Shown piece by piece: positions 2,957 to 31,674 of a stretch of 35,091 nt of DNA (position 1 is its first letter; each line of letters begins with the position of its first letter). Under the pieces are notes generated by a model that saw nothing but the letters and a program-made list of their open reading frames with translations, was not told the origin of the DNA and searched no databases. The translations under genes were made by a program, and so were the position numbers. Source of the stretch: Neolentinus lepideus HHB14362 ss-1. Its lineage: Eukaryota > Basidiomycota > Agaricomycetes > Gloeophyllales > Gloeophyllaceae. The stretch is from the NCBI GenBank assembly GCA_001632425.1, contig KV425677.1, forward strand, positions 19,043-54,133. The letters are read 5' to 3'.

Positions 2957-4183
2957 CGGAAGGGACGGAAAGCGAAGACCTCAGGTAAACTGGAAGTATA
3001 TCCGTATGTACTACACAGATATGTATGTATACTACACCCTTTACAACCAGCACGGACAGCACTGTCCGAGATGCAATCCGACACACGCGGAACGGGGCGG
3101 TGAGATGGGCCAAGAGATGCGTTTGGGCTGTGTTGTTCCAGGACCTGCGGTCGGTGGTATGGGCTACGCAGGGACGTGCGCGCGAGGATGAGGATCCGGG
3201 ATTGGCGGGCTGATGTCGGTCGAGGAGTAGGACCGGTCGTTGCGGCGGTCAGAGTTCTGATAGCCCCACGACGAATATGGATTTTATGTGGGCGTTCGTT
3301 GATTTAGAAACATTCACGGGATGGTAGCGTTGATAGTTTATTGGTAGTGATACCAGCATTCTCAGATGTTGGGATAGTATAAGAGAAAGAGTTGACGACA
3401 AAGCTGGGGGGAGTGGTCCTGATAGAAAGCTTATGTGTTTGAGGGACTGGTGGAGGCCAGAGGGTGGGGTGACCGTTGACGAGGTGAGGATGCTCCTTGT
3501 ATGAGATTTGTCCAGGTTGTAGTATCGACCGCAAAGCGATCCTCCTGTCCTGAGATACTTTGACACGGGCAAGCGTCGAGAATCCCGGGTCCTTGGCTGA
3601 CCGTTTTGGCGCGTGATACAGTCGATGTTTTCTGGGGCTGAGGCGCACAACGCATATAGGAAGTTTCAACCAGCGGCAGCAGGTCAGGGTCGGGGCTTTA
3701 TGGGTTCCGCTGCTTCCGCAATCGCTGTTGAAAGTTGCAATGTATCCTTTTGAAACAAAGCAAAGCCCGGATATATAGAGATATATAGACGGCATCCATC
3801 ATTGCGGCGATGGCGCAGTGATTCCAGTGAACCGCTACTCGAAAGTTGAAACGCTGCCTGTCCAGATCATAAAGTTATTTCCAAAAATCGCAATGCCGAG
3901 ACGTAACCGAGGAGCATATGGTGTGACATTGTGCATGTGATCGCGTCGCGTCGCGAAGCCACAAGCGTGTTGCGACCAATCCGACATGTCCCGACCTTCG
4001 ACTCGGAAGATTCGCTCGTGCCTGATAATCCGAGTAAACCAATGGTATCCTAGTACATTGTACATTTACAACAGGTACAGAGCGAAGTACGATACGAATG
4101 ACTAAAGCGCACAGCGCTTGGGTCTTACACATGATGAGCAATTTACAGAACATCCACCGAATATAATTGACACTTGCATGCAC
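2957..4183. other. Intergenic stretch between convergent genes
   Basis: The open frames here are short and unsupported by splice sites or recognisable sequence. Apart from the repeat at 2990-3048 the stretch appears empty. It separates the 3' ends of the decarboxylase (+) and the unrecognised gene ending at 4184 (-). A small AT-rich run (GGATATATAGAGATATATAG) lies near 3769-3788. Confidence 0.5.
2990..3048 (-). repeat. Inverted copy A of a ~60-bp element shared with 26528-26588
   Basis: Read on the minus strand, this matches 26528-26588 at all but about five positions. The match includes an uninterrupted 23-base run (TAGTACATACGGATATACTTCCA; here its complement at about 2991-3013). A further 12-base match (GACGGAAAGCGA, 2964-2975) lies on the gene-proximal side of this copy and recurs in the same relative order at 26608-26619. 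The element begins 34 bp after the decarboxylase stop codon. Confidence 0.85.
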
Positions 4184-5485
4184 TTAGTCCGAGTCTGCGA
4201 GCCCGACCATCTCCCGCAAGCCCTGTGCGACCACCTGCATCTCGAACCGTGTTATCTCGCGGCTTAAGACGAGCATCTCGAGGAAGTCGTGGCGCTGCGA
4301 GGCAGGCCAGGCTGCCATCGCTCGTATATACCTTAATGGATGTGATTAGCATTTTGGATGGGAGATGGAGAGGGGTGCGTACTCGGCGTTGATGATGCCG
4401 ATCCCGACAAATGTCAGCCCGAGCTGGGGGAGTGGCGGGGAGAGGGAGGCGAGGAAGGCTTTGATGGGCTCGGGGGCGGAGGACGAGGTGGTCGTGAGAG
4501 CCTGGGAAGAGATAGACGAGATGGATAGTTGCCCGGAGCCAGAGCCGGAACCGGAGAGGGTGGCTGAGACTTGCGAGCTGTTGACCAAGGTCGATGTAGA
4601 AGCGGAGGAAACCTGGGAGGAGGTAGCGTCCGCGGGGGCCTTGGGAGGGACCAAGACGTAGACCTCGTAGGATGATTAGTGTATTTCGATGTTGAGAGGA
4701 TTGACTTACCTGGCGGGCGGGCGGGAGAGACTTCCGGGGTATAATAGACGGCGTCGCCTGGAAAGAGGTCTTCAGTAGCACGAGTAGAAGTCAGGTTTGT
4801 TCACTCACAGTATGTCTGCTGGTGTCTTGCGGCAGCTGCTGATCCTTTGGAGGCTGATCAATGGTGTTTGTACTCTGGAGGGGCTGTCGGGACACATTTG
4901 TCGACGCCGTCGTGGTATCCACAGTATTCTCCAGCCCCTTGCCGTTCTCCTTAGTGGCAGCCGCTGCGTCCTTCCGCTGCAGCCAGAGCCTATGGTTCCC
5001 AAGGTATTGAGACATGAAGTCGCGCAGAGGCCAAGAGTGCTTGAATCGCTTGAATACCGGGAACGCGGTCGTCATCTACACGTCATGTAAGGGATATGAA
5101 TGTAGAAGAGAGGGAAAGGGGATAGACGCACGGCGTGGATGAATGTTTCCCACTCGCGATCCTGCTGCCTCACCGAGAGTTCGAGGTTGAGGTATTCTGG
5201 GGCGCGCGCGAGCACCTCTTTCTGAAACCCGAAAGACGGATTTGATGGAGTTGGACTCGGAGAAAACTTGGAGAGACATACCCGAAGTTTTTTGATCTGG
5301 TGAGAGGGGATCACTCGGCCGAGGGCTTGCGAGTACGACCCTGGCCCCCGGGGGATGATGCGCGTGCCGGGCGTCGTGGCGCGGGCTGTAGGTTTGAGGA
5401 AAGTCAGTATCGAGGATGGAGAGGGGTCTAGAGACTCGCGGATAGTGTCAGCTCCAGGCTGGGTCTTGACTTTGATGCGGGGCAT
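4184..5485 (-). CDS. Hypothetical protein, 345 residues, unrecognised
   Basis: Six exons on the minus strand: 5485-5282, 5221-5132, 5075-4809, 4757-4710, 4663-4383, 4331-4184. All introns are 44-60 bp with good GT-AG ends (GTATGT, GTGCGT, GTGAGT, GTAAGT, GTACGC) and phases that join, which argues for a real gene although I do not recognise the family. The N-terminus is basic and proline-rich (MPRIKVKTQPGADT). The middle holds a conserved-looking aromatic/basic block at about residues 105-130 (FKRFKHSWPLRDFMSQYLGNHR). A Ser/Thr-rich linker with a GSGSGSG run follows at about 210-265, then a short hydrophobic stretch near 283-293 (LTFVGIGIIN) and an amphipathic C-terminus ending GLADSD. No signal peptide, clear transmembrane segment or catalytic motif is visible. 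It is divergently arranged with the GH16 gene, 540 bp away. Confidence 0.7.
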
Positions 5486-6025
5486 GTTGGACGTTGGAAG
5501 TTGAACACGGTTTGTTGACTCTCTTCGCGATGCATGGTTCGTGTGAAGTTCAAATCTGAGATCACAACACTTGTAAAAATAGATCAATAGGGTCCGCGAT
5601 TTCGGCGCCAATCGCAGTAAAGACTGATGTTACGATCACAAACTGTCACATTGTAGCTCACCTCGGCTGATGTGCGATTCTCCAGGACCGTCGCGTCTCC
5701 ATGCCCATCGCGTGTTCTCCATACGCACACCAGAAGCGACAGTCGGCCACTCGATCTTGTCGGATGCGAGGGTTTCTCGGCACCGTTCGCCAGATCCATG
5801 TGCACAGCACTCTGCACCGCATTTCCTGCACAATGGTAGCGACGCGATCGGGTGGCGAGCACTACTTGTGCCATGCGGTCGCGCACGTATAAAAGGCAGG
5901 GCGAAAGGAGCCAGATCTTCAAAGCACGCCAGCCGTGTATCTGTCCTTCATTGTATCGACTGTACACCTCCCTCCCTTGGGTTCCTGTGATATAAATCCT
6001 TTTGTATTACGATCTCTACATCGTC
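5486..6025. promoter_or_regulatory. Divergent intergenic region with GH16 promoter
   Basis: This 540-bp region separates two divergent start codons and so must hold both promoters. A good TATA box (TATAAAA at 5888-5894, followed by GGCAGGG) lies 132 bp before the GH16 start, a normal distance for a strongly expressed secreted-enzyme gene. A second AT-rich element, TATAAAT at about 5991-5997, is too close to the start codon to be the main TATA box. Confidence 0.55.
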
Positions 6026-7696
6026 ATGCTCTCGCTAGCTCTCCTCTCCTTTGCTTCTTCGGCCCTCGCGGCCACTTATGGTCTCAGCGATAACCATGTC
6101 GGGTCGGATTTCTTGACGTCGTTTACGCATGAGACGATTCAGGATCCGACTCATGGGCGGGTGTGAGTCTCCTCGTTTCGTGTTTCCTCTTCCCATTTCT
6201 GTCTGCGTTCTGCGTGCCACCTCTTCCCTCCCTCCTTCCACCTCCCGACCTGTATCCCCCATCCTGCACCCCCACTAACCTAACCCACCCTCATAGCACC
6301 TACGTCGACCAATCCACCGCCGTCGCCAACAACCTCACCTTCACCTCCGCCGACTCGCTCGTCATGCGCTGCGACGACACGACCGTCCTCTCCTCGTCCG
6401 ACCCGGGCAGAAACAGCGTGCGCATCAAGAGCGTAAAGACGTACACGACGCATGTTACTGTGTCAGTCGGTTTCCTACGTATATGGTCTTCTTTGACCGG
6501 CTGACCTCGCTTGCGTTGTGATATTGTAGGTTTGATATTCGCCATATGCCGCAGGGCCTCGCGACATGGCCTGCTGCGTGGGAGACGCTTGAGGATGGGT
6601 GGCCAGCAAGTGGGGAGGTGAGAGTCGTTTCTCTTTCTTATTTCCTTGTTTTGTGGCCCTTTATTTCGTCTTTGCGTCTGTCTCTTCCCAAGCCCCACCC
6701 TTGATCTTCTCCTTCTCGTACGCGCACTAACGACCCTCCTTCGTAGGTCGACATTCTCGAAGGCGCGAACGACGTCACGCCCAACCAGAGCACGCTCCAC
6801 ACCTCGAGCGGGTGCACGATGCCCGACGGGCGCGCGGAGACTGGGTGAGTGGCCTCCTCCCTCTCTCTCTCCCCGCCTCACAACGCTAACAAACACATGC
6901 AGAACGGTCGTGCAGGAAGACTGCGGCGACTCGGGCGGGGCGAACCTCGGGTGCGGCGTGCACGCGCCGACGTCGAATAGTTATGGGGTGGCGTTTAACC
7001 AGAATGGCGGCGGGTGGTGAGTGTCCCTGACTCTGGCTTTTATTCTTGAGAATATGGTTCATTTGGGTCGAGACAACCGCGGTTGATTTGATTCGAGACA
7101 GCCACGGCTGATTTGATTCGAGACGACCACGGTTGATTTGGGTCGAGACAGCCACGGCTATTTCACTCGAAACCACCATGGCGATTTGGATTCGAACAAA
7201 GACTAACGTTTCTTTCTGTAGGTACGCGATGGAGCGCACGGACTCGTTCATCAAGGTGTGGTTCTGGGCGCGCGGCGACACGACCGTGCCCGCGGACGTG
7301 TCAGGAAATACGGGGAGCGTGGATACGGATAACTGGGTGCGTGTTTCATTCCCATCTCTTCCCTCCTCTCCTCTCCCTTACTCTCCCATCTACTCCCCCT
7401 CGCTGATCCTCTCCCCATTTAGGGCACCTCCACCGCCTTCTTCCCTTCCTCCTCGACGTGCGACATCTCCTCCAAATTCGGCGCGAATAATATCATTATC
7501 AACCTCACGCTATGTGGGGACTGGGCGGGCACGACGTTCCAGAGTGCGGGAGGGAGTGGGGACTGCAATTGTGGGTGTTGGTTTTGTTTTGTTCGCGATA
7601 AGTGCTGAGGGTCGGTTAACAGCGTACGTGGACGCCAACCCCTCTGCGTTCTCGGACGCGTACTGGGATATTGCGGCGGTTAGGGTGTATGCGTAG
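6026..7696 (+). CDS. Secreted glycoside hydrolase family 16 (laminarinase / endo-1,3(4)-beta-glucanase type)
   Basis: Eight exons: 6026-6162, 6297-6461, 6530-6617, 6747-6844, 6903-7016, 7222-7336, 7423-7570, 7623-7696, giving 312 residues, normal for the basidiomycete members. The first ~16 residues (MLSLALLSFASSALAA) are a signal peptide, so the enzyme is exported. The GH16 catalytic motif ExDxxE is intact across the exon 3/4 junction: Glu130 (nucleophile), Asp132 and Glu135 (acid/base) in GEVDILEG. Flanking family blocks are present: FDIRHMPQG, LHTSSGCTMP, YAMERTDSFIKVWFWARGD and CGDWAGTTF. N-glycosylation sequons occur at NLT, NQS and NLT. Family members cut beta-1,3- or mixed beta-1,3/1,4-glucans, acting on fungal cell wall or plant material; the precise substrate is not readable. 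Intron 5 is oversized and built of a 25-bp tandem repeat. Confidence 0.95.
7061..7203 (+). repeat. 25-bp minisatellite inside GH16 intron 5
   Basis: About five and a half direct copies of a 24-25 bp unit (core ATTTGATTCGAGACAGCCAC) fill most of the 205-bp intron 7017-7221. The first four units are nearly identical and the last two drift. Units start at about 7061, 7086, 7111, 7136, 7160 and 7184. Confidence 0.9.
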
Positions 7697-8709
7697 ACGC
7701 TCGACTGGTGAGGCGGTAGGTGGTCTGGGGAGGGTATTTATTTATTAATGCACAACGCGCTGTGCGCTGTTGCTTGTCGTGTATATACCAGTGTGGCGTG
7801 TTTTGGGTATTTATTTTATTTTATTTTATTTATTTTACTTGATTGAGAGAATGCGAGGCTCTCGGAGTCACGATTTTGATCATCTGATGGCTAGCAGCGG
7901 CGTTGATCCTGTGACAGAAAGCGAGTTGTGATGTGTACGTTTGACGGGATCATGCGGTAGACGTAGATTTGATGCTGTCAACCTCGGATCGGGCGAAAAA
8001 TGGAGAAATGATTTATTTAAAAGTGGAGCACATAGGTAATTCAGGGGAAGTCTATTGTGCGCGCCTTCGTGTTACAGAAAGATGATTAAATTATTATACG
8101 TAGGAGTGTGTTTTACTGATTGGAATGTCTGAACGAGTTTACAGGCGGAAGATAATTATTCGCTGGGATTTTACAAAGTGAGTGTCATTGGAAGCTGTTT
8201 AATACCCTGCATGCCATATATTTTCCTAAGCTACGCCTTTTCTTTTGCGACGGTGTTTTCTTCGCGAGGGAAAAGGAAAGGTTAAGGTTGGTCCGGGAGG
8301 AGGTCTATAAGGTCCACCGGAGATTGCGGAGAACACGAGTGACGTCACGGTGGCCCTCTGCGTCTCTCGTCGACCAGCACGTCTGTATTCTCCGCCACGT
8401 CTCAGCGCCCTGCTTTCTTTTGAAAGGACTGCCTTGCGTTAAAAAAACGGACACAATCGACACAAGTTAGCGAATAAATGGGACGACCCGACGTTTACAA
8501 AGCTGACCGAAGCGCTGGGGATGATGAGAGGCTAGCCTGGCTCGTTCTAACCTGGACGCGGCACACGGAATGACTTCATCTCGCTCGAATGCCCGAGACA
8601 GCCTGCAACATCCGCGATGGCATTAAGAGCCTCGGCCAGCCTGGTGCGGCTCTATTCTAGTGTATTCATTGAGCTGGTCATCTCTGCATCCATTCTCAAG
8701 TCTGCTGCC
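7697..8709. other. Intergenic stretch, GH16 3' flank to RhoGAP 5' flank
   Basis: No coding sequence is supported. A simple (TTTTA)n tract occupies about 7810-7837 and probably lies in the GH16 3' flank. The sequence from about 8600 to 8709 reads as a pyrimidine-rich 5' leader of the RhoGAP gene, although an in-frame ATG at 8617 leaves a longer N-terminus possible. Confidence 0.5.
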
Positions 8710-11123
8710 ATGAATGACCGCGCGTCCCTCTCCGCACCCACTCCCCGCCGCGCTACTGTCACTGGCCCTACCCGTCCGCCGCGCAGCATTCTCAGGTCAT
8801 TGCCGCCATCTGCGTCATCCAAGCGCTTCTCCCTGCCCGAAACGTCTTCCCCGCCCAACGGCCGACCGCGCTTCGCAAGCATCAACATTCCTTCAGCCGC
8901 GTTTATCGACACGGGCGACGACGGGGACAGGCTCGCGAGGGCGTGCGGGATGCCGCCGCCGTCGCATTACTCTGACTTTCCCTCTCCGTCTGGATCTCCT
9001 CGGTCCCCGTCTGAGCAGTTGGAATTTACCTACCCGGACTGGCGCGGTCGCTCGCGAAAGGAAACCGCGGACGATGCGAGGGGGAGGAGGAGGGCGAAGC
9101 CGATGCCTAGGCCGGACGTGAAGCAGGTGTATAAAATACTGGATGGGGTGTTGAGAGGGATGGGCGTGAACATGAAGGAGGTGTTGGGGTTGCAGGATGT
9201 GTTGGGGATGTATGAGGAGGACGATGACGATGATGACGAGGGAGGGGCAAGGGGGCCTAAGCGTGAGCGTCTGCTTCTTGTTCTCTGGAAGGCGAGCACT
9301 GATCGGAGGGTTCGTGTTCGTGTTTAGGTGTGTTCGGTGTTTCTCCTCTGAAAAGCATCCAATACGCATCGGCGCCTGTGGTTGTGGGAGGGTATGAAGC
9401 GAGGATACCGATCGTGGTTCACAAGTGTGTCGAGCAGCTGTTGAAGACGGGTACGTGTACAACACACTTTGTGGCTGCTCTAAACTCACGTTCATGCCTT
9501 TGCCCACCTCCTCTACCCGCCTTACCTCGTACCTTCTTGGCCCACCTCCATCTCTGCTCGGTCAATTCACCACCCCACAATGCAAACAGGCATCTACCAA
9601 CCAAATCTCTTCCGCCTCCTGCCATCGCGCGAGCGGCACCTGTTCCTCATATCCGTGTTCGACTCCAACGCCGACTTATCGCCGCCGTCTGATTCGCCCG
9701 CCACGCGTCGTGCAGAGGAAGGATACAGTGGTCGTGCAGAAGATTACAGGTCGTCGAGTCGCAGAGAAGATCGCGGTTCCTCGAGTCGCAGAGAGCAAGC
9801 CAACGGCCCCACGCGAGCAGGGTACGGCGCGGCCTTCTCGCTCGCGCCCGAGCGCACAGAGGACGTGTGCGCGTTGCTGCTGAGCTACCTCGGGAGCCTC
9901 CCCGGTGCGGTCGTGGGCGGCGCCGTGGGGCGCGCCCTGTGGGAGTGGTGCGTCGCGCGTTCCGGGTCCGGGGATGCGGGCGCGGAGGCGGAGGTCGCGA
10001 CGCTGCTGCTGACGCTCCTCCCGCCGCCGACGCTCGCGCTGTTTGCGTACTTGATGGGGTTTTTCGAGACGGTGGCGGTGGGGTGCGGGGAGAACGGGAT
10101 GTGGGAGGGGGATGTGGGGAGGGTGTTTGGGGCGGGGGGGCTGGGGTGTAAGGGGGGGAGGGAGGAGAAGTGGAGGGGGGAGAGGATGTTGGTGTGGATG
10201 ATGCGGCGGTGGGGGGCGATTAGTGAGGCGCTGTTTGGGGGCGGGGAGGTGGAAGTTAGGAGGAGGGGGTCGGTGCAGGAGAGGCGTGGCCCTGTGCGGT
10301 CTCCGTCCCGGTCTCAGGACAAGGAGGTTGGGGTGGAGAAAGAGAGACCTGTGAGGCGGCGCGCGACTGTTCATGGGGGCGGCGAGCGCGAGCGGCCGGG
10401 GCTTGCGAGGAGGGCGGAGAGGAGGGACGGGGCCGCGCCGTACGTGTCGCCAAAGGGCGGCCATCGCCGGCTCGCGATGCAGGACGCATACGAGTTTGGG
10501 GCGGGGAGGGAGCATGAGGGGGATGAGGCGACGCCGAGGCCTGTGGGTGGGGATGGGTATCCGTTCCCTGATGCTGTTCGGATCTTGCGCTCGTCAGATC
10601 CGTCGGCGGAGGTGGGGGAGGTGCCGGGTTTGAAGAGGTCAGTGTCGACTGCTTCGTCGGGTTCACCGTTTTCGGAACAAGGGGCGGAGGATGTGGACGG
10701 TGCTCGCGCGTGTTTGGGTCCTCATGTTGGTGAGTCTTTTGCGTTTTGTTCGCTGGGTTGTGAAGACGAGGACTGATTTGGGCATCAGTAGATGACTCTG
10801 GCTCTGTGGACCGACTTCTTGCGGAGAGGGATAAGAGGATCACGAGCCTCGATGAGGAGCTTGAGAGCGCCAGGAGCAAGATTCGCGACCTCGAAGCGAA
10901 GATGGCGACCGACAAGTCTCGCTGTCCACCGCCATCGTGTCCCCAGCTGGATGTGAACGTGCCGTCTGAGCAGGATGGGCTGGACTGGTGCGATTTGCTG
11001 GTGACTGGCGGCGACGAGGAGCTGAGGCGGCGGCTGGACCGAGTGGTTGGTGAGCGCGATGAGACGAGAAGGGTGTTACGGGAGGTTATAAGGTTGGTGG
11101 AGGCGACGGCGAGGTTGGGGTGA
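8710..11123 (+). CDS. Divergent RhoGAP-domain protein with C-terminal coiled coil
   Basis: Four exons: 8710-9262, 9328-9450, 9590-10729, 10792-11123, giving 715 residues; an upstream in-frame ATG at 8617 would add 31. I chose 8710 because MNDRASLS begins a Ser/Pro-rich tail and the 31 extra residues look like translated leader. Order: disordered Ser/Pro/Arg-rich region (1-135), a helix-rich block ending in an acidic run (YEEDDDDDDEGG, about 166-177), then the RhoGAP domain from FGVSPLKSIQYA (about 187). Its blocks are IPIVVHKCVEQLLKTG, NLFRLLPS with the arginine finger at Arg234, VCALLLSYLGSLPG, and TLLLTLLPPPTLALFAYL. A low-complexity Arg/Ser-rich insertion of some 50-65 residues sits after the finger. 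A disordered tail and two coiled-coil stretches (SVDRLLAERDKRITSLDEEL and EELRRRLDRVVGERDETRRV) finish the protein. RhoGAPs switch off Rho/Cdc42/Rac at membranes and the cytoskeleton; substitutions at other signature positions leave activity uncertain. Confidence 0.82.
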
Positions 11124-11475
11124 TTGGAAATTGAATTGATATGTATAGGATTGGTTGTATTGATGTGCTTCCTGGACACTGGAACCTGTTTATATGTCCT
11201 ATGCCTTCCATTCGAGCGGCGCATACAACGGTGATGTTATACGGAGGTGAGCAGGGGATAGCATCAGTGCCACATGAACTCAATTCCCAAGGAGGGCCCG
11301 CCAACCTTTGGGTGTGTGTTCATTCACACTCGAATTTCGGTACCGTCTGTCTTGGGGCAAGGGGGGAGACGTGTTAAACCCAATCACTAGAAGCAAGGGT
11401 ATACGTGTTATGACAAAGTACATTGAAGTCAAAGTTACATGTTCCCTCCAGTATCGTGACGGGGTATATATATAT
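11124..11475. other. Convergent intergenic stretch
   Basis: This 352-bp spacer lies between the stop codons of the RhoGAP gene (+) and the P450 gene (-). It should contain both 3' UTRs and polyadenylation sites. Nothing else is apparent beyond a short (TA)n run near 11465-11474. Confidence 0.5.
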
Positions 11476-13922
11476 CTAATCTCTAGGCGCGATGCTCACT
11501 TGCAAGGGTAGTTGGGCGCCCTTTCCGGACTGGCCCTCGACCATGGGCGCCATGACGAGGCAGGGCTCGCGGCGGAGGCGCGTGGCGTCCTTTGTCAGCG
11601 AGAAGTGGAATTGGTCGATGAGATCGAAGAGGAAGGTTTGTAGTTCGAAGAGGCTGGTGCCAGAACGTGGATGAGTAGAGAGCAGGCACGGACAGGTTGG
11701 GTGGGGACTTACGCTATACGCCAGCCGAGACACGATCGGAAGCCGCCGGAGAAGGTCATACTGGAAGGAAGGAGGTGGTCAGCGGAGGGACGCGGAAGAG
11801 GGCTGGAGTACTACTGACAGATTCGAGTACATGCCGACGGTGAGGCCGGTCTTATTATTTAGACCTGGGAAAGACGCGTCGAGCCAGCGCTCGGGTTTGA
11901 ATGCATGCGCGTCCGGGCCCCATACGTCTTTGTTTCTGGGTGGCGATTATCAAATGTGGAGACGCCAGATTGATCGTATAAGAGGGCGTACCTGTGATAG
12001 CCGGCGACGGATATGATCATCTTCGTCCCGGCGGGTACGAACACGTCGGATATTTGCTCTCCTTTCGATGTGACGATGGGTTTGTGCAAGGGGATCACGT
12101 CGTCGGTGCGCGGTTGCCGGTTCATGTGGTAGCCCACTGGGTGGAGGCGCAGGACTTCCTGCGTGGACAATGGTTAATAACGCAGAATAGATTAATGGCA
12201 CCGCGTCGAGGAATCAAATATAACAGCTCGCTCACCTTTATGACGCTGTTGAAGTAGGGGAGGTTATCGATTTCGTTGACCCACTTGTCTTTGTCCTCGA
12301 GGTCCCGGACGCCTCTCGCGCGAGCGGCGCGAATCTCGTCGCGCAGGCGTTGCTGGGCGCGCTGGTCTTTCGCTAGTTCGTATAGCGCAAAGCAGAGTGT
12401 GGCAGCTGTTGTGTCGTGGCCCGCGAAGAGTACAGTGCTGTGATGGACGTGAGGTAGTTTAGTTGTAACAGTCGTTGAGGAAAATGACGGGATGCTTACC
12501 ATACTTGAGCTAGCATTTCCTCGCGGGAGAGCTTGCTGCTCCCGTTGTGGGAAGAATTCGCGTTGACTGCCGGCGAGAGCGGAGAACAGCTAAGCCACCG
12601 CCAAAAAGAAATAAGAGTGCGTGTAGACTTACTGAGGAGCGTCAGCAAATCGAATCCCTTCGCCTTCCCCATGCCGCCGCGCGTCCTGTCGAGGCTGTGC
12701 ACGCCGCGCTCCTCGGTGACGAGCGACCGCGCGACGCCGTTGACGACCTTCTTGACGCTGCGCAGGCGCTCTAGGCCGCGGTTCGGGATGTGGTCGAAGA
12801 GGAAGCGCACGACCGGGGGCGGGAGGAGGTGCATGCAGCCCTGGGCGAGGACGGCGGCTGTGTTGGGAAGGGCGAAGGCTTCTATTCTGGTGGGGGTAGC
12901 GTTAGATGAGAAATGGGAAAGAAGAAAGGACTGGGGAGCGGCAGGAGTGGATACGGACGTCATGTTCTCGTATGCCTTGCCCAGCTCGCTTTCAAGATCG
13001 TCGAGGGCGCCGATGTCGTATCCAAAGGCCGCTGTGTAATATTTGAACAGGCCACGCGATCAGAAACGCCGGAGAGATGTCAAGGGATGTTAAGTTGGCT
13101 AGGAAAAGACAAGTGTGGGGCGCACCTTCGCCGATGATATCCAGAGAGGCACGGTTGATCCATTTGGGAAGGTTGATCACGACCGGATAGATGTCTTCGT
13201 GCAGGGCGTCTTCCTCGTCCCCGGATATTAATATGGTGCGCCATTTGGATGTGAGCTGCAGGGACATCTCAGTGTAAGTTGAGACCTGGGGGATTTTCCT
13301 TACGCTCTCGGCTGTTGCTCTGAACAACGGGATGAGGCTCTTTGCTTGAGCCACTCCGAATGCGGGGCTCATGACCTTTCTGTGGCGTCTGTGAGTATCC
13401 GCTATCACAGGTTTTAGATGGGTGAGTTGCTCAGTTGCTCATTAAAAGAGGGAACCGACCGTCTGCCCAAGCTATCCCAGGGCCTAGCAAGGTGCGTAGG
13501 ACTTCTCGATCTTGAGGCGGTTGAGTGTAGTTGGTAAAGTTGGTCTGAAAGATGTGTTGAATTGCCTTTGGGTCGCAGATCATAAGACGGTCCTCCTACA
13601 AACCGCCAATAAGGGATAGGATAAAATACGTAGAAAGTATGATTACCCCGAGTGGTGCTTTGAAGCGCAAGACCGCGCCATATCTTTCTTGCCATTCAAA
13701 GTCCACTTCGCCCACTTGTCCCTGGCGTATTTGGCGATAATTGCCTGTATAATCGTGAGAAATATAGATCCCGCATAGGGATCGCCGGGTCGAACCTAGC
13801 AGAAACGACTCCGCATTTGGACCTCTGATGTCGGCTAGTAGGCTGGACCGGGAGCGACGCCTGTGGAGGATGTACACGCAGAGCAAGGCAGCGCAGGCGA
13901 GGGCGGCATAGGGAATGGACAT
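11476..13922 (-). CDS. Cytochrome P450 monooxygenase, microsomal class, basidiomycete type
   Basis: Thirteen exons: 13922-13796, 13744-13647, 13595-13460, 13401-13304, 13255-13126, 13031-12959, 12886-12633, 12566-12500, 12437-12236, 12158-11992, 11935-11819, 11760-11713, 11653-11476. Phases agree throughout and give 564 residues. The N-terminus (MSIPYAALACAALLCVYIL, then HRRRSR) is a membrane anchor with a positive stop, so the enzyme should sit on the ER facing the cytosol and use cytochrome P450 reductase. Diagnostic motifs are all intact: I-helix AGHDTT at 333-338, K-helix EVLR at 396-399, PERW, and heme loop FSGGFRSCLG with the heme-ligand Cys500. Two junctions, near 13256-13303 and 12887-12958, are less certain: both introns could be read through in frame, but they have good donors, branch sites and acceptors, and removing them restores the family pattern. 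The substrate is not predictable; family number left unassigned. Confidence 0.93.
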
Positions 13923-15659: not shown

Positions 15660-18600
15660 AGGCCTAGGGATGACGTTGGAACATGTCGAAGCACTCGATT
15701 CCATCCTTGGAGCCTTGGTTTGCTGCAGTATCTCGGCTCTTGAATCATCATGCATTGAGTTCTAGGCCAGGCAAGCACAAACCCTCTGGAGTATGTTGGA
15801 GGCAAACGTACCGTATCACCCAACCGCACCACAGATACCACAACGTCTGCTTCCGCAGCGAGACCAGCGAGCGAAATCGTGCGACCATAATACAACGGCC
15901 TCGCTAAAAGTGTGCTGCGGCCAGATCACCCCCAAGTACGGTCAGTGAATTGATATCTCATCCCGGACGTACGGATAGGATGGGATGATGGGCTACTCGC
16001 AGGACCGTATATCCCGGCGACGATCATTTACTGAGCGATACTAAGACTGGTCACCGCACGGAAGCCGCTACCTCCTCTGCATTTCCCTTGCCGCGAATCT
16101 TAGCCCCAGTGTCCCACTCCGATAAACTGTGCTGCAAGGAACCGGGGGGCAGTTGGCCTCCTCGTTTCGGTACCCGAGGTCGCAGGGAGTGATGGCAGAT
16201 CAGCTTAAGTGTCCGAGATGCCCACGATACATAATGCGGACAGTAAAAGGCTTGCTGAGATTTTGAGAGAGTTACCGGGGTTGCGGGTAGTCTGGTAGTT
16301 CAGAGTTATGGAGGGCTCAGGTCAATGATTTAGTTCTACGCACAATGACAAACCACCGAGGAGAGAACGTACCGCTATCGTCGGGCATAACCCTTCGCTC
16401 GCCCTCCTGTATCTCGAATTGTACCGATAACGGATGGACTGAAGTGGTAGGCCAGACTATATGCGAATCATTCAAATGCACTACAGATAACCACAATATT
16501 AATGTCTGCTTCGATAGCGAGAGACGTCCACCGGCTAACGAAGCGAGCCCTATCGAAAATAATACAATGGCATCACTAAAACTCTGATGCGGCTAGATCA
16601 CCCCATCCGGTAAGTGAGGTTTCATATGCATCGTCAGCCTGGACGTACGGATATTTGACGTCACATAAGCTGGGATGATGTTGTGCTAACAAGGGTAGTT
16701 GTGCTCCTTAGTCCGAAGTCGTATATAGGACCGTGTTAGCCGGGAATGATAGAAGCGACGGTGTTTTAGCACACTCATTTATTGGATAATCCTGAGACCA
16801 TAGGTAGACTTACCAAGCCTGGTCAACGTAATGAAGCCCCGGTCCTCAGCTGTCGGAAAAGACAGATGGCATCTCTCTTACCAAGAATCTCTGTCCCAAG
16901 TGTCCCACGCCGGTAAATTTTGAATTTAAGGCATCGACGTCGTTCTGCAAGGAACCAAGAAGCAGTTGGCCTCCTCTCTTGGTGCCCGAGGTTCCCGAGA
17001 GTGATCGCAGATCAACTACAATGTCCTGGCATTGTCTGCTTCGATAGTGAGAGACGTTCACCGCGTTCACCGACCAACGAGCACGACCAGAAATATGCGA
17101 CCATATACAATGGTCTGGTGAAAATTGTGCTGCGGCTAGACCACCCTCACGGCACTGGTCAAGGACGGTCAGTGGATTGACGTTTCATACACATCATCAG
17201 ATTGGCGGGGATAATAAGGAGACATGAGTAGTTGCGCTGCAGTCATAGAACCGGATTATCCGGGAATGACAGAAGCAGCAGTTGTTAGAAAACTCATTTT
17301 ATTGGATAATCCTGAGACCATAGGTAGACTTACCGAGGCCTGGTCAACATAGGGAAGCGTCCCTCTTGATATGAATTAAGCATGGTCCCAAGCTGTTGGA
17401 CAGGAGAGATGGAATCTCTCTTGCCGCGAAACCCAATGTCCCACGCCGATAAATTTTGAACCTAAGACATTGATGTCGTGCTGCAAGGAACCAGGGGGTA
17501 GTTGACCTCCTAGTCTTGGTGTCCGAGGTCGCCGAGAGTGATGGCAGATCAACTTGTCCGTGATGACAGAAGCAACAGTTGCTGTTATTGGACGATACTA
17601 ATACCTAACTGGCTACCACCGGCAGGACCAGACTGGTCAACATCCGGAAGCCATTACACGTCTCTCCCCGGATGGGGTCCTTAGGACAGAGGGCAACGCC
17701 TTTGCCGCGAATCTCTGTCATCAGTGTCCCACGCCGATGAACTTTGAATCCAAGTACTGCAAGGAACCGGGGAGCAGTTGGCCTCCTAGCTCTGGTACCC
17801 GAGGTTGCCGAGAGTGATGACAGATCAACTTGTCCGTGATACACGCGATACATAATGAGGACAGCGAAGAGGTACTGACAACTTTGTTACCGGGGGTGCT
17901 GGAAGCCTGGTATTTCAGAGTTATGGAAGGATCGGGTCAATGATTTAATTCTATGTACAATGAAAAACCACCGAGGAGTGTGGTGGAGGCAAACGCACCA
18001 CTATCGTCGGGAGTGACCGTTCGCGCGCCCTCCTGGATCTTGAATTGCACCGATAACGGATGAATGAAAGTAGTATGCCAGCCTTTATCCAAATCATCCA
18101 ACCGTACCACAATATCTGCTTCGATAGCGAGAGAGGTCAACCGTTCACCGACCACCAATGAGACCATCGAAAACATGTGATCATATACAATGGCTTGGCG
18201 AAAATTGTACTGTGGATAGATAGGCGAACATCCCCCCTATCCGATACCGGCACCACGTGTCAAGCACGGTCAGTGAATTGAGGTTTCAGCCCGGACGTAC
18301 GGATATCTAACGTCAGATAGGAGGGGATGATAGTCTGACAAGAGTCGTTGCGCTGCTCACTTTCAGGCCCGCATTAACCGGGAATAACAGAAGCAACGAT
18401 GTGTTAGCAAACTCGTTTATCGAACAATCCTGAAACCATAGGCAGACTTACCAAGGCCTTATCAACGTCCGGACACCCCCCTCATGATGTGGATTAAGCA
18501 TCGTCCCAAGCTGTCGGACAGAACAGAGAGCATCTCCCTTGCCCGCGAATCTCTGTCCTGAGTGTCCCACGCCGATAAACTTTGAATTTAAGGCATTGAT

Positions 18601-18830
18601 GCCGTGCTACAAGGAACCAGGGGGCAGTTGGCCTCCTAGTCTTGGTGCCCGAGGTCGCCGGGAGTGATGGCAGATCAACTTGTCCATGATACCCGCGATA
18701 CATTATGCGGACGGCAAAGAAGTTGCTGACGTTTTTGAGATTTCGATAGAGTTACCGGGGGTGCAGGTCCACAGTGGGCTGCCGGCGGTAAGCCAGTTGG
18801 GGAATCCCTGATGGTACAGAGTTGTGGAGG
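15660..18830 (-). repeat. Degenerate tandem array of coding-derived repeats (about five copies)
   Basis: A long unit recurs in direct orientation. One block of about 70 bp (around AAGGAACC..GGGGGCAGTTGGCCTCCT, running on to GAGTGATGGCAGATCAACTT) occurs five times, at about 16137, 16947, 17480, 17759 and 18608. Spacings are about 810, 533, 279 and 849 bp, so full units are 0.8-0.85 kb and two are internally deleted. A second block (TCTGCTTCGATAGCGAGAGA) occurs at about 15848, 16507, 17035 and 18115. A third (GTTACCGGGG) occurs at 16275, 17886 and 18751. Minus-strand translation keeps related peptides in different copies: SLAIEADIVV, SLAIEADINIVV and LAAEADVVV; also VQFKIQEGARTVTPDDSG and VQFEIQEGERRVMPDDSG. 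Frames are interrupted by stops and frameshifts, so these look like decayed exons of a tandemly duplicated gene. I do not recognise the family. Confidence 0.75.
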
Positions 18831-20839: not shown

Positions 20840-21700
20840 CGAATGACGAGTTGATAGACACGGGTACCGGTGTCGTTTAATACGTGTCTAGTATGCCTCA
20901 CTCGGTGTAAGAAGTTAGAGATAATTGGCACGAGGGATAATATGATGGGTGCGCACCAAATGGTCCAAGGAAAGTGTTTACCCACTAAACTCGCTGTAAT
21001 CGACACGGGGCGACGAAGAGATGGCCTACATCTCCGGAATAGATATTTATACGTGACATCTTACCGTACCAGGCACTGGACCACCAGGATTCACGCAACG
21101 GGACACGTAGCGAGAACAGAGGGAGTTCGTTGGGGGTAACCTTGGCTCGAGAGATACGCGGTGCGAATGCTGCCAGGTAGTACTCTATTCGAGAGCACTC
21201 ACGCACCGCGTCACGCTCGATACAATGGGGTTGGGGGTTGAGAATATGCGTGTATGCGTTGAAGGTGGAGAAAATCGGACTGGTGTGGTTGGATACACAT
21301 GTCTGAAGGTACGCGTCACTCAAGTGAAAGAAGGGTGAAGGGGAATTAGAGACAATGGACACGATGGATAATATGTTGGGTACGCACCGGACGGTCCAAG
21401 GAAAATGTTTGCTCAGTAGACTCACTGTGATCGCCCACACAGTGACGAAGAGACCGTCTCCATCCTCGACAGAGATATTTACGCGTGACGTCTGACCGTT
21501 CCGAGGACTGGAACACTAGCATTCAAGCACAGCACACGTAGCGAGAACAGAGGGGCATTGTTGGGGTAACATTGGATCGGGAGATGCGCGGTGCGAGTGT
21601 TGCCAAATGAGACTTTACTGGAGAACAATCACGTACGGCGTAGCGCTCGATCCAATTGGGTTGAGTCAGTTCAGTGAGAGGGGGGTAATGAGGAACACAG
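20840..21700. repeat. Direct tandem duplication, period 431 bp, two copies
   Basis: Two diverged direct copies: about 20840-21270 and 21271-21700. Two independent anchors give the same spacing: GATAATATG at 20936 and 21367, and CGAGAACAGAGG at 21111 and 21542. That is exactly 431 bp each, so no net indel has accumulated between the anchors. Minus-strand translation shows KHFPWTIWCAPIILSLVPII in one copy and KHFPWTVRCVPNILSIVSIV in the other. The second half of each peptide follows a GTGCGT donor-like site, so part may be intron. Confidence 0.75.
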
Positions 21701-22896
21701 GGTGACGGGAAGTGTATCGGCTCGATGGAGGGCGTTCACTCGAAGGCTGCGTGGTGTGGATGTTACGAGGCCAAGGAAGGGGATTTTTACCGTGTGCTGT
21801 TGAATGCGAAGAAGTTGATCACGGGAGTGTGTATATGCGAAGGAAGGCAAGATACTGGAGGAAGGAAGGACCTACCGATGTTATTTGAGGGATGCAGAGA
21901 CACCAGTAGACTACGTGACACTGCATGAGCGTCTACGGTCAAACTGTGAGCTGAATAATAAGCGTATATTTGTCGGCAATTTAGCGAAAGGAGAGAAAAG
22001 GGTGAACCCGTAAAGCAAAGAGAACACGGAAGGGACATGTGTGATGAAAAGAACCACGCGGTAACAGGATTGCGAGGCATGGCCCTCAGTCATGCTAGAA
22101 TCGCGGTACCGCGTGCTCCTTCGATACAAACAAGCTATTGAACCAACTTTGAGAGTGGTATATGCGACAGTCTTGAGGATAAAAGCGGATTAATGTAGCC
22201 TAAATCCGGAATGAGCGTCAGTCAATAAGTTACGAGATCCCCAGGAAAGGCGCACTGCCTGCGATATTCTGAATTGGGCGATTTCTAACGCCGGCTCGCA
22301 CAGCGGTGCGATGATATCACATTTGAAATATCTTGTTGGTTCTCTCACGTACACGATATAATTCCCACTGCTCTCACTTTGGTTTTGCAGCGTGTGTCTT
22401 CAGCTCAGCGGAGTGACCATCTGGTGTTGATTGCTAGATAGGGTTAGCGAGAGACTACAGAGTACCGCTACAAATATGCATACCATCGGAATAGGTTTCA
22501 TGAATGGATCCGATCGATATCAAGTGATTTTCCAGAGATGAACGGAGGTCTTGATGCAAGGTTGATGCTGTGCGATATTTGGTTCAACGAGGGACCAACA
22601 GTGTACCATTCTGCTACATCGTTAGCGAACTCATTGCCACAAGACGAAGACAAAAAGCATACGGGTGAGTGAGAGCGCTAGATAGAAACCGAAATATTGA
22701 GAGGCGGCGACACAAGGCAGAGGATCCGTGTGCGAGTGGATGAGGCTGTGGCAAGTGTGAAGGGGTGATCAATAGAGTCGGCTAATCCCGATCGTAGATC
22801 GAGTTGATCGCGTCCACCTCCACATTTTACGCGCATATATCGACCTCTTCGCCCTTCGTCGCCACCAGCAGCACCTGTACATACCTAAAAGCCGCC
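21701..22896. other. Intergenic stretch, 5' flank of importin gene
   Basis: Short unsupported open frames only. The importin promoter should lie in the last few hundred bases; no TATA box is evident, which is usual for a housekeeping gene. A CT-rich, leader-like stretch precedes the start codon from about 22840. Confidence 0.45.
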
Positions 22897-25800
22897 ATGG
22901 AGACCGTCGTGCCTTCAGAGGTCACCGCTGAGCTGACCCAGATACTCTCAAACCTCGTCCTGGGCGATAACCAGATTCGATCCAAGTGCGTACATGTTCC
23001 TGTACTTCGAGGATTCAGCTCAAGTTTGGATTTGAGCACAGCGCTGAAAATGCAGTCAACGAACGACTAGCGACGTCGCCAGAGCTGTACATGCTTGCAC
23101 TCGCACAGTTCGCCATGTCCGCAGATAAGGAAGTCGTGCGTACATCCTGTCCTGCATCCTCGCCATGTGCTCACACTCTCGCAGATGCGCTCCTTTGCTC
23201 TGGTACTACTACGCCGCCTCCTTTTCCGCACCCAACCCAACACCTCCATGACGCTCTACGACCACCTCACTGGCCCAGCGCTCGCCGCCCTCGAGCGTCT
23301 CCTGCTCCGCATCCTCGCCGCTGAGCCTTCTCCCGCCGTCCGTCCGAAAGCAGTCGACACCATTTGCGACCTTGCAAACAACTCGATGGGCCGAGGCAAG
23401 CCCTGGCACGCGCTGCAGAGTCAGGCATTCAGCATGACGCAGAGTGACGACCCGAATGCGAGGGAGGGCGCCTATAGGGTCCTTGCAGGATGTCCAAACC
23501 TGATTCTGGATCTAGATGTGGCAACTGTGATTGGATTATTGCAGAAAGGACTTCAAGATTCGCAATCTGTCGAGGTGCGTTTCGTTCCGTCTTAGACCTC
23601 GGACCCTACCACCCCAACCCCAAACCAAATACATATCTATTCCTCTGACTTTGGCTTATGCAGGTTCGCCTTGCTGCGCTGAAAGCTTCCACGACATACC
23701 TCTCCTCCATCGAAACCCATCAGCTCGCCCAGTCCCTCGCCCTCATGTACCCCATCCTCGACACCCTCCCCGCCCTCTCCAACACCCACCTCCCCAAGTT
23801 CCTCGCCGCCCTTACCCCGCTCGCGACCTCCTCTCCCACGCTCTTCGCCCCGCACCTCCCCGCCCTCCTCTCATTCTTCTCCGCCTTGCTCGCACCCACC
23901 GCGGATCCTGGGCCCACACCGACTGTCGCGAGACCCTTCCCGAGCTCGGGGAGCAGCGCGTTTACGTTTCCGCCGCCAAACGCGGGCGACGGGAAGGGGG
24001 GGAAGGGCAAGGAGCCCGCGGAGGAGGTAGACGAGGAGAGGGAGGAGGTGAGGAAGGCGACGCTCGAGCTGATGATCAGTCTCAGCGAGGCGCGGCCGGG
24101 GATGGTCAAGAGGGTGAGTGGGTGGGTGACCGCGGTGGTGCGCGGGTGTCTGGAGGGGATGGGCGAGTTGCCGGAGGGAGAGCTGGATGTGTGGCTAGAT
24201 GCAGATGTACGTGCTCGTTTCCGTTATTCTCCTCTCATCGTCTCACGTCTCTCACTCCACAGCCCGACGACGACCCCACCGACGACTCCTACCCACACGT
24301 GTACGAGCAATCACTCGACCGGCTCGCGATCGCCCTCGGAGGAAAGTCTGTTCTACCACCAGCCTTTCAGTATATTCCGGCGATGCTGGCTTCCCATGAT
24401 TGGAGGCTGAGGCATGCGGGACTGATGGCGATTGCGGCGGTGGCGGAGGGCACGCATAAGGTACATGTTCTCGTGATCCATCGTCTCACTGGGTAGGAGC
24501 TCAAGGGATGCGTAGGTCATGGCGAATGAGCTGGGAAAGGTCGTCGAGTGAGTGACGAGTCATGCGAGAGGGGGTGGTACTGAGAAGATGGGGCTTTAGA
24601 CTGGTCGTGCCGATGTTCAAGGACTCAAATCCGAGGGTGCGCTACGCGGCGTGTCAGTGCATGTGAGCTTCTTTTTCGTTTTGTGGAGTGTTGTTTTAAA
24701 CAGCGATTCTGACAGAGGGCAGTTGTGTACGGACATGGAAGTAAGTGATCGAGTCGGATGCTGTGGATGGGCGTGCAAGTGACGGAGCGTGTGTAGGAAA
24801 TAATACAAGAAAGGTACCACGAAGAGCTATTCGCAGCGCTTATACCGACGCTTGATGCGCCCGAACCCCGGTGAGCACCTCTCTCCCCCTATCTCTCCAT
24901 TCCCTCTCCCTTGCCCCCGCCTCCCTTTTCCGACCTAACGCTCTACCTCTGCAGAGTGCACGCCCATGCCGCCGCTGCCCTTATCAACTTCTGCGAGGGC
25001 GTCGCGCGGGAAACCTTAATACCATACCTGGATCCGATCTTCGAGCGTCTGCTGAGACTCTTGAACCCGGCGGGCGAGAGCGGGCGCGTGGTGAAGAGGT
25101 ACGTGCAGGAGCAGGCGATCACGACGCTGGCGATGGTTGCGGATGCGAGCGAGGCTACGTTTGCAAAGGTGCGCTGTCAGCCGATCGACAGGGTAGAAGT
25201 AGAAAGCTGATTGGTGTGGTGGTAGCATTACTCGTCCATCATGCCGCTTTTGCTGAACGTGCTGCAGAATGCGGCCGGGAGCGAGTATCAGAAGTTGCGG
25301 TTGAAGGCGATGGAGTGTGCAGGGCTGATAGGTGCGTTCTTACCTCATGTGGTCGGTCTCATTTTTGGTTGCTGATAGGATATCTTTCACTCTTGAAGCT
25401 ATTGCGGTCGGGCGCGATGTCTTCCGCCCCGACTCGGCGGTGTTCATTGAACAGCTGATGCGGATACAAAGTACGTATCTTGTAGGCTCCTGGGCGTATA
25501 ATAGGGGATTGACGTGTGCGACGTAGACAGCCCACTGGACTCAAGTGACACCTTGCTTCCACATTATTTGATCGCGACGTGGGCGAAAGTGTGCCAAGCA
25601 CTCGGTCCGGAGTTTGAGCCATATCTGCCTGTGGTTATGCCGGCACTGTTGCGGGCAGCGAGTGCCAAGGCGGATGTATCTATTTACGACAGTATGTCTT
25701 CATTCTCATCCATCCTGGATGCTGGTCTGATGTGAAGGGTAGACGACGACGAGGAACACGAGGACAAGGAAGGCTGGGAGACGATCTCAATGGACGGGCA

Positions 25801-26492
25801 GCAGGTCGGCATCAAGACCTCTGCGATCGAGGAGAAGTGCCAGGCGTTCGAGACGCTCGTTATTTATTGCTCGACACTGCAAGCGAAGTTTGCCCCGTAC
25901 CTACCACAGAGTTTGGAGCTCGTGCTCCCGTCGCTTAGGTTCTATTTCCACGACGGTGTTCGGGAGGCTTCCGCATTGTAAGCAGTCACCTTTTGTGATA
26001 TCGCTGCTACTGATAGCTTGTTGTAGATTGGTTCCGATGCTCCTTTCATGTGGCAAGCACAGTGGTACGCTCACACACCAGATGGTTAACGCCTCATTCA
26101 CCCAAGTCGCGAGCTGTATGGCATCTGAGAATGACGCGTCCTTCCTCGCTTCGCTCTACAGGTCGTTTACCGACTCTCTACGGGTAATCGGCGGCTCGAG
26201 CGCGCTCCCGCATGAAATACAAGCCCACGCCATCGACGCGACGAAGCGCCAACTGAATATCCTCGCGGAGAGACGGAAAGCTCGCGCGGAGAAGCCGTCA
26301 GCTGAGATAGAGGACGAGCGTGAGGATATTGCGCTGTTGGAAGAGATGGAGGACTTCGCGCTAGAGGACATGGAGAAAATGTTGAAGGCTTTCGATCCGA
26401 ACCATCCCCTCGTCGTAGCGATTTCTAGCGTCAAAGAGCTGGGGCTGCATCTTGGGGAGTGGAGTGAAGACGAGGGGGATGAAGAGGGCTAA
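22897..26492 (+). CDS. Importin beta-3 / karyopherin Kap121 (importin-5) homologue, C-terminally short
   Basis: Fifteen exons: 22897-22985, 23042-23135, 23185-23574, 23664-24206, 24263-24460, 24516-24547, 24600-24662, 24716-24740, 24797-24870, 24955-25168, 25226-25331, 25399-25470, 25527-25691, 25743-25977, 26027-26492. They give 921 residues. The start sits in a textbook context, GCCGCCATGG. HEAT-repeat blocks follow the Kap121/importin-5 order: [83 protein letters not shown], the acidic [22 protein letters not shown] and [10 protein letters not shown] (about 755). The protein would carry cargo through the nuclear pore under RanGTP control. Yeast Kap121 and human importin-5 have about 1,090 residues. 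This protein stops just after the [18 protein letters not shown] helix with an acidic tail (EDEGDEEG), so the last HEAT repeats are missing. Exon 4 contains a charged, Gly/Pro-rich insertion around [18 protein letters not shown]. Confidence 0.92.
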
Positions 26493-27242
26493 CCGCACCA
26501 ATCATACTCATCTATACTTTCTGCCTTGGTTGTAAAGGATGTAATATACATACATATCTCTGCGTAGTACATACGGATATACTTCCAGCTTCATTTATCT
26601 AAGATTTTCGCTTTCCGTCATTTTTCTCAGCCGCCGCCTGCAAAGTTTCCTTTCAAGCACTTACCGTCAACGCTACCTCTTCTACAATAGCATCGTACGC
26701 ATGGGTCTCGTGAGTCGTCAGTCCTCGCAGCCCCTACGGCGAGTCATATGCAAAATACGCCGCTCAGTTGCGTCTGCATCAGGAGTAAATTATATCTGGC
26801 CTCTGGTACCAAGACTAGCTAGAAGGGGCTGCGCACAGTATCGAGTGGCCGTCCGCGAATCAATATTTCCCCAATAGCAGTAGATGGTATACCGGGAGTA
26901 TCTCGGACTATGGCGTAAGCATATCGTAGTTCTATATACTCGATGTCAGTGTATATACCATTTCCTTTGCTCGTTCAATATGCAGGTTTTTGTTTAATTC
27001 GGGCGGGTTTTATCGCAGTCATCTCAGTCTCGTTTACCCGGTCCCAACTTTTCCATTACAGTGCCTCTCATACCGACTCGTTATTATACACCACCATGAC
27101 AATGCTTCTGCCATGTCAACTCGCATGGACAAGGCAGCTTGGAAGAATTCCAAAAAATCTCGCATGTTGCGAGGTCATTTGACAGCTGTTGCCCATTTAA
27201 AGCATGGACAAGTTTCGTCCTGTATCATATGTGACACATGAG
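26493..27242. other. Importin 3' flank and intergenic stretch
   Basis: No frame continues the importin C-terminus and no other gene is visible. The first ~130 bp hold the repeat copy at 26528-26588 and its companion at 26608-26619. The rest shows only short spurious frames. The importin gene (+) and the next gene (-, ending 27243) are convergent. Confidence 0.5.
26528..26588 (+). repeat. Inverted copy B of the ~60-bp element shared with 2990-3048
   Basis: Begins 35 bp after the importin stop codon. It is the reverse complement of 2990-3048 with about five differences, one of them a single-base insertion near the middle. The 12-base companion TCGCTTTCCGTC follows at 26608-26619, in the same relative position as at the other locus (spacer 19 versus 14 bp). 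Confidence 0.85.
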
Positions 27243-31207: not shown

Positions 31208-31484
31208 TGTGACGGTTCGGAGTCGGGATCCGGGACTCCACGTGGTGTCCCTCTCGTTTAGGGCGATGAGGCTGAGCGGGAAACATCTAGGCCGTATTAT
31301 TTTCTCTACCCTCTTTATTTTATTGTTTGTTCTTGCTTATACGACGGACCCCTCGTGGGGTATAAAAGAGATGTAGCTACTGCCTGTACGCTACCTTAGT
31401 CTCGTGCTGATAGACTGTTCTGAAAACCGTCTGTTTGTGCGTGCTTTCCGTGTGCCACTACCTGCTTAGTCAGCTAGCGTCACA
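31208..31484 (+). repeat. 5' long terminal repeat, 277 bp
   Basis: Bounded by a perfect 7-bp inverted repeat, TGTGACG at the left end and CGTCACA at the right end, with the canonical TG...CA termini. It contains a TATA box at 31361-31367, about 155 bp inside the left end, which separates U3 from R/U5. The partner LTR is not in the window, so the boundaries rest on the terminal repeat and on position relative to gag. Confidence 0.8.
31361..31367 (+). promoter_or_regulatory. LTR TATA box
   Basis: TATAAAA preceded by a GC-rich CCCCTCGTGGGG palindrome (31350-31360 region). Transcription of the element would be expected to begin about 25-35 bp downstream, near 31390, inside the LTR. Confidence 0.6.
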
Positions 31485-31610
31485 TATTTTTGACGAGTAC
31501 TAGAACACTCTACTAGGCGACAAAAAACTCACCGCACTTGGGCAAAGTTCCTGGCTGATCACCCGGAACTTCCAGCGGTCAATTACTCTGCGTTCATCTT
31601 CTCTGATTCA

Positions 31611-31640
31611 TAAAAAAAAAAGAAAAGAAAAAAAAAAACG
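31611..31640 (+). other. Poly-A/purine tract in the retrotransposon leader
   Basis: Roughly 27 purines, nearly all adenine, interrupted by two G residues, about 35 bp before the gag start codon. It is in the 5' leader, not beside a 3' LTR, so it is not the usual polypurine tract that primes plus-strand synthesis. It may be an unstructured leader favouring translation. Confidence 0.5.
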
Positions 31641-31674
31641 AGTGCGTTCTAATAATAACTGTTCCACTTATAGT

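What the first reader, a model, noticed from the sequence alone, without database searches (positions are those of the whole stretch)
2957..26630. Inverted ~60-bp duplicate at the 3' ends of two genes 23.5 kb apart: likely inversion scar
Seen: 2990-3048 and 26528-26588 are reverse complements with about five differences, share a 12-base companion on the same side, and each starts about 35 bp after a stop codon (decarboxylase, importin). Known: inversion through staggered breaks duplicates the breakpoint sequence in inverted orientation at both ends. Inference: decarboxylase and importin were once convergent neighbours sharing one 3' intergenic region, and the segment 3.05-26.5 kb was inverted. 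Both copies being downstream of stops, in the orientation each gene would have seen, fits this better than a random dispersed repeat.
Basis: partly seen in the sequence, partly recalled or inferred. Interest (0 to 1): 0.75.

Follow-up and report, generated by a model that had tools for sequence, protein, structure and literature searches.

The report
Dead inverted decarboxylase tail beside importin
In a wood-rotting fungus, the end of a decarboxylase gene has a reversed copy just behind an importin gene, where the coding part has decayed but a 60-letter stretch behind the gene stayed almost unchanged; this may be the scar of a small chromosome inversion, an ordinary kind of genome rearrangement.

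Summary
The repeat is real and larger than reported: 2777-3049 (+) and 26527-26800 (-) are inverted homologues (280 alignment columns, 76% identity). They include the last 60 codons of an aromatic-L-amino-acid decarboxylase (DDC), its stop and 93 bp of 3' flank. Genome searches find only these two places. The genome is very probably Neolentinus lepideus (identical DDC protein). The right copy is dead: two stops, two deletions, and three further changes at residues invariant in 13 relatives. About 50 residues place the copying after the split from Heliocybe. The 60-mer is 57/60 identical against 155/207 in the rest, suggesting constraint, perhaps as a 3'-end signal. The dead tail lies tail-to-tail with importin, as an inversion through a staggered break predicts, but no relative's gene order could be read. 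DDC and importin share a contig in Jaapia, not in Heliocybe. Inversion leads at about 0.42; a partial copy without inversion (0.27), or a remnant of a longer DDC duplicate cut by a later gene arrival (0.22), remain live. Known kind of event; modest interest.

The parts
528..2956 (+). Intact DDC gene, 11 exons, 496 aa, aromatic-L-amino-acid decarboxylase (PF00282)
   Evidence: spliced model identical to P0001 NEOLEDRAFT_1143320; PDB relatives are tyrosine/DOPA decarboxylases
2777..3049 (+). Source arm S: last 60 codons including the DDC stop, plus 93 bp of 3' flank
2990..3049 (+). Conserved 60-mer, DDC-side copy
   Evidence: 57/60 identical, against 131/174 in the coding part
22897..26492 (+). 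Importin beta-3/importin-5 type gene, 15 exons, 921 aa in my model
   Evidence: model; P0121, 924 aa in the database; PDB importin-5/beta-3; probes of 185 and 200 aa each hit one genomic place
26527..26800 (-). Arm S': dead, 5'-truncated copy of the DDC tail, convergent with importin
   Evidence: TGA at the codon matching 2831-2833, TGG to TGA, 2-nt and 4-nt gaps relative to DDC
26527..26588 (-). Conserved 60-mer, importin-side copy, antisense to importin
26800..26810 (.). Junction: DDC homology ends, and homology to a gene copy on contig C64 begins
26810..31179 (-). Member of a dispersed gene family ('gene Z'); main block 26810-29936 is 82.7% identical to C64:181405-184525
   Evidence: no Pfam family above cut-off in the ORFs tried

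Best explanation
26527-26800 is a dead, inverted, 5'-truncated copy of the DDC gene tail, probably made in the Neolentinus lineage after it split from Heliocybe (dead inverted copy shown by sequence, about 0.93; the timing rests on few residues). Most likely route (inferred, about 0.42): DDC and importin stood tail-to-tail with about 127 bp between their stops. One chromosome break was staggered across the DDC tail (at least 273 bp), and the 23.5-kb piece carrying importin was rejoined inverted. Both new ends then kept a copy of the tail: DDC its own intact end, importin a second copy behind it. The importin-side coding part decayed, while the 60-mer stayed almost unchanged at both ends because each gene still uses it for 3'-end formation (inferred, about 0.45). 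Later a gene-Z copy came to lie against the 5' edge of the dead tail and may have shortened it (inferred).
For: DNA found nowhere else in the genome stands in inverted orientation at both ends of a segment, which PMC3355041 gives as the mark of staggered breaks (passages). The copy includes DDC coding sequence, stop and 3' flank. It is tail-to-tail with importin, 34 bases past its stop. Dead copy: two stops, two gaps, 4 of 16 columns invariant in 13 relatives changed against 15 of 35 variable ones (Fisher p 0.35; small numbers, weak test). Timing: 5 columns where the dead copy matches Heliocybe and DDC differs; 5 columns where DDC and the copy agree on a residue that Heliocybe lacks and at most one of 13 relatives has. 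60-mer 57/60 against 155/207 in the rest of the arm, Fisher p 4e-4 (region chosen after seeing it), clustering permutation p 0.007. DDC and importin on the same contig in Jaapia (289 kb) and in 7 of 13 taxa with both contigs at least 1 Mb (6 of 12 without Scleroderma, matched at genus level).
Against: Heliocybe has DDC and importin on different contigs (241,701 and 29,711 bases), and 41 of 49 taxa show no shared contig, so tight adjacency is not general. The right edge of S' coincides with the end of gene-Z homology (26800/26810), and the Z/C64 3' end region is less diverged (203/241 identical) than S/S' outside the 60-mer (155/207), p 0.018, so 273 bp may be a cut remnant rather than the original overhang. 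C64 beyond its Z copy shows no clear match to the sequence right of 3050, as it would if the C64 copy recorded the pre-inversion neighbour; with looser scoring the score (186.5) exceeded all four shuffles (138-175), with stricter scoring 4 of 40 shuffles reached it. Coding differences are 12, 10 and 21 by codon position, a third-position excess with p 0.025, which leaves room for a time when the copy still served as a gene. Gene order in relatives was not seen.
Confidence: 0.42

Rival explanations
1. No inversion: a break behind importin was patched by copying the nearby DDC tail in reverse (templated insertion or small segmental copy).
For: Same contig, short copy, clean edges, found nowhere else in the genome. 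Gives the same anatomy without moving genes. Fits DDC and importin not sharing a contig in 41 of 49 taxa.
Against: Landing tail-to-tail 34 bases past a stop is then a coincidence, though intergenic landings are favoured. The conservation of the 60-mer on the importin side would need co-option.
Confidence: 0.27
2. S' is the last piece of a longer or full inverted DDC duplicate behind importin, cut off when a gene-Z copy arrived at 26810.
For: S' ends within about 10 bp of the gene-Z homology, and Z/C64 is less diverged than S/S'. Third-position excess in the coding differences, p 0.025. Some taxa list two DDC proteins (Cytidiella melzeri, Termitomyces sp. J132, Suillus subaureus, Amanita muscaria).
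Against: tblastn at E 0.05 finds no other DDC piece in contig C126 or in the fetched stretches around the Z copies; PF00282 matches elsewhere are on C7 and C40 only. One Heliocybe and one Jaapia DDC among the 120 listed of 4974 hits. No clear sign of constraint in S' (weak test).
Confidence: 0.22
3. 5'-truncated retrocopy of DDC mRNA inserted behind importin.
For: Tail-only copy reaching about 93 bp past the stop; S lies within one exon, so absence of introns says nothing.
Against: I saw no poly(A) run or convincing target-site duplication at the edges by eye; no test was run for this.
Confidence: 0.04
4. An older inverted pair of DDC copies recombined and inverted the segment between them.
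For: Inverted homologues flank the segment.
Against: Needs the duplicate first; S' is short and diverged.
Confidence: 0.05

Closest known systems
Staggered-break inversions of Drosophila (2h and 2q of D. mojavensis, PMC3355041; E12 of D. subobscura, PMC4965816)
   Same: Formerly single-copy DNA in inverted orientation at both ends of a segment; in 2h one copy intact and the other reduced; duplicates from a few hundred bp to 8 kb, partial genes included (passages only)
   Different: Fungus, 23.5-kb segment, 273-bp duplicate; no outgroup gene order here; the 60-mer is conserved at both ends; the dead copy ends against a gene-family copy
Truncated pseudogene from a partial inverted duplication
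   Same: Stops, frame breaks, changes at invariant residues
   Different: The noncoding end is far better preserved than the coding part and sits in the 3' flank of another gene

Membership tests
staggered-break inversion | otherwise single-copy DNA in inverted orientation at both ends of the segment | tested here: met
staggered-break inversion | segment inverted relative to an outgroup order | not testable with these tools
   no relatives of this genome held; only contig lengths of proteins
staggered-break inversion | ancestral adjacency of the joined genes in relatives | tested here: inconclusive
   same contig in 8 of 49 taxa including Jaapia (7 of 48 without Scleroderma); different contigs in Heliocybe
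pseudogene | disabling changes in the coding sequence | tested here: met
pseudogene | absence of coding constraint over its whole history | tested here: inconclusive
   invariant-column test p 0.35; third-position excess p 0.025, partly expected from the living copy
dispersed repeat | many genomic copies | tested here: not met
bidirectional 3'-end element | conservation above the surrounding homology | tested here: met
   57/60 against 155/207, region chosen after seeing it
bidirectional 3'-end element | mRNA 3' ends of DDC and importin lie in it | not testable with these tools
   no RNA data; RNA folds are ordinary

The most novel reading that the evidence does not exclude
The inversion split one shared, two-way 3'-end signal into two copies, one for each of two former tail-to-tail genes. 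Selection has kept both copies since, while the rest of the duplicate rotted, so the scar itself maps a functional terminator to about 60 bp.
Probability: 0.28. Interest if true: 0.5.

Novelty: new member of a known kind. Interest (0 to 1): 0.27.

Why it matters
If the inversion is confirmed, this is a base-resolved fungal case of a mechanism that I know mainly from flies (recalled, and the papers seen). It also acts as a natural experiment: decay of a duplicated gene tail outlines a short, preserved 3' element that two genes may use.

Tried and rejected
Dispersed repeat: rejected. RNA hairpin in the 60-mer region: z-scores 0.18, 0.21, 0.83 and 0.76 in the four sequences folded, nothing. Pre-inversion neighbour recorded at C64: C64:184526-194999 against window 3050-12000 gave 8 short hits, the best E 2.8e-4 in the wrong orientation and one in the expected orientation at E 0.29; strict local scoring was reached by 4 of 40 shuffles; a looser scoring had exceeded its four shuffles. 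Terminal inverted repeats at the gene-Z ends: 8 inverted pairs in 26780-32400, none at both ends. A protein search with the window ORF 9580-10773, meant to place a middle gene on a Heliocybe contig, returned no hit among 7991 candidates scored. Contig sharing was judged by equal contig lengths in the two lists of 120 hits; taxa not in both lists were not counted. 48 taxa were matched by species or strain name. Each cluster shows only its longest contig, so for clusters with several members (for example Pleurotus pulmonarius, Taiwanofungus) the two proteins may come from different assemblies. In one search the last 7 alignment columns, gap-rich in relatives, and one column with a broken codon were left out of the column counts.

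Full report
Source. The window is C126:19043-54133 of a 33.8-Mb, 168-contig genome. Its decarboxylase protein is identical to NEOLEDRAFT_1143320 of Neolentinus lepideus HHB14362 ss-1, so the genome is very probably that brown-rot fungus (way of life recalled). The contig length listed there is 54,962, while C126 has 54,133 bases; I did not resolve this difference.

Observation. The arm holds the last 60 DDC codons including the stop (2777-2956) and 93 bp of flank. Genome searches find only these two places with this homology. The sequences right of 3050 (3,001 and 251 bp) each match only themselves.

Genes. DDC: 11 exons, 528-2956, 496 aa, open throughout. Importin: 15 exons, 22897-26492, 921 aa in my model, 924 aa in the database, of the importin beta-3/importin-5 type. 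Importin probes of 200 and 185 aa each hit one genomic place; a decayed middle piece lies on C64.

The right copy is dead. Relative to DDC it lacks 2 bases at 2862-2863 and 4 bases at 2950-2953, has TGA for an arginine codon (2831-2833) and for a tryptophan codon, and changes a D, a T and an N that are the same in all 13 relatives aligned. Of 16 invariant columns 4 are changed, of 35 variable columns 15 (p 0.35; a weak test; one broken codon and the last 7 columns left out). Codon-position differences are 12, 10 and 21, a third-position excess with p 0.025. I judge this to fit a dead copy beside a living, constrained gene, but a time of service before death is not excluded.

Age. In 5 columns the dead copy agrees with Heliocybe and DDC does not; in 9 columns DDC agrees with Heliocybe and the copy does not. 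In 5 columns DDC and the copy share a residue that Heliocybe lacks and that occurs in at most one of 13 relatives. The copying therefore most likely happened on the Neolentinus line after the Heliocybe split. This rests on about 50 residues and no tree was built.

The 60-mer. Identity is 131/174 in the coding part, 24/33 just after the stop and 57/60 in the 60-mer. Fisher p is 4e-4 for the 60-mer against the rest of the arm, with the region picked after seeing it; a permutation test of clustering gives 0.007. Constraint is the simplest reading; gene conversion between the arms is not excluded. It holds TATGTA-like motifs, which recall yeast 3'-end efficiency elements (recalled, from no call). 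RNA folding is unremarkable.

The right edge. From 26810 on, the minus strand is 82.7% identical to C64:181405-184525 (main block 26810-29936), with further blocks to 31179. This is a dispersed gene family: 18 places in the genome, itself included, for one of its ORFs. The ORFs tried have no Pfam family above cut-off; one C64 ORF had a weak match at E 0.037. The 3' end region of 241 aligned bases is 84.2% identical to C64, against 74.9% for S/S' outside the 60-mer (p 0.018); part of that region may be coding, so rates may differ. The gene-Z copy probably arrived, or was duplicated, after S' was made. It may have cut S' short, so 273 bp is a lower bound for the duplicate.

Linkage in relatives. 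The genome tool holds no relatives of this genome, the genome-contig collection is bacterial and archaeal, and metagenome scans are capped at zero, so no relative's DNA was searched. Using equal contig lengths in the two lists of 120 hits, DDC and importin share a contig in 8 of 49 taxa: Jaapia (289 kb), Serpula, Crassisporium, Scleroderma (genus level), Phlebopus, Amanita muscaria, Coniophora and Coprinopsis cinerea. Among taxa with both contigs of at least 1 Mb it is 7 of 13 (6 of 12 without Scleroderma). In Heliocybe they are on different contigs. So the two genes often stay on one large contig, but close adjacency is not general, and orientation is unknown.

Mechanism. An inversion through one staggered break gives DDC + tail, inverted segment, tail copy, right flank, which is the order seen. 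PMC3355041 and PMC4965816 (passages seen) describe such duplicates in flies, including one intact and one reduced copy, and sizes from a few hundred bp. The same order results from a reverse copy of the DDC tail behind importin without inversion, or from a longer DDC duplicate later cut. I weigh these at about 0.42, 0.27 and 0.22. In the listings I saw (12 of 23 papers, 10 of 10, 10 of 105, 12 of 12; titles and starts of abstracts) I noticed no fungal staggered-break inversion; this is not a claim that none exists.

Verdict. It is an ordinary kind of rearrangement, with one attractive detail: a preserved 60-bp 3' element on both sides.

Noticed in passing
26810-31179, minus strand; also C64:180400-184525, C52, C41 and two places on C21: Dispersed gene family without a Pfam family above cut-off in the ORFs tried; 18 genomic places for one ORF, itself included, five other copies aligned here over about 3-4 kb.
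   Followed up: partly
C64:177201-178253 (L016): Decayed piece of the importin gene (about residues 454-688, 38-40% protein identity, 63% DNA identity) lies about 2.1 kb from the 5' side of the C64 gene-Z copy; a second link between importin and this family that I cannot explain.
   Followed up: partly
15876-18768: Diverged direct repeats with start-to-start spacings of about 0.3-1.6 kb; a 2-kb probe, 16800-18800, matched only this contig.
   Followed up: partly
12125-12502, minus strand: Cytochrome P450 exon (PF00067).
   Followed up: no
7056-7180: Tandem repeat of a 25-bp unit.
   Followed up: no
20915-21566: Direct duplication, start-to-start spacing 431 bp, 82-84% identity.
   Followed up: no
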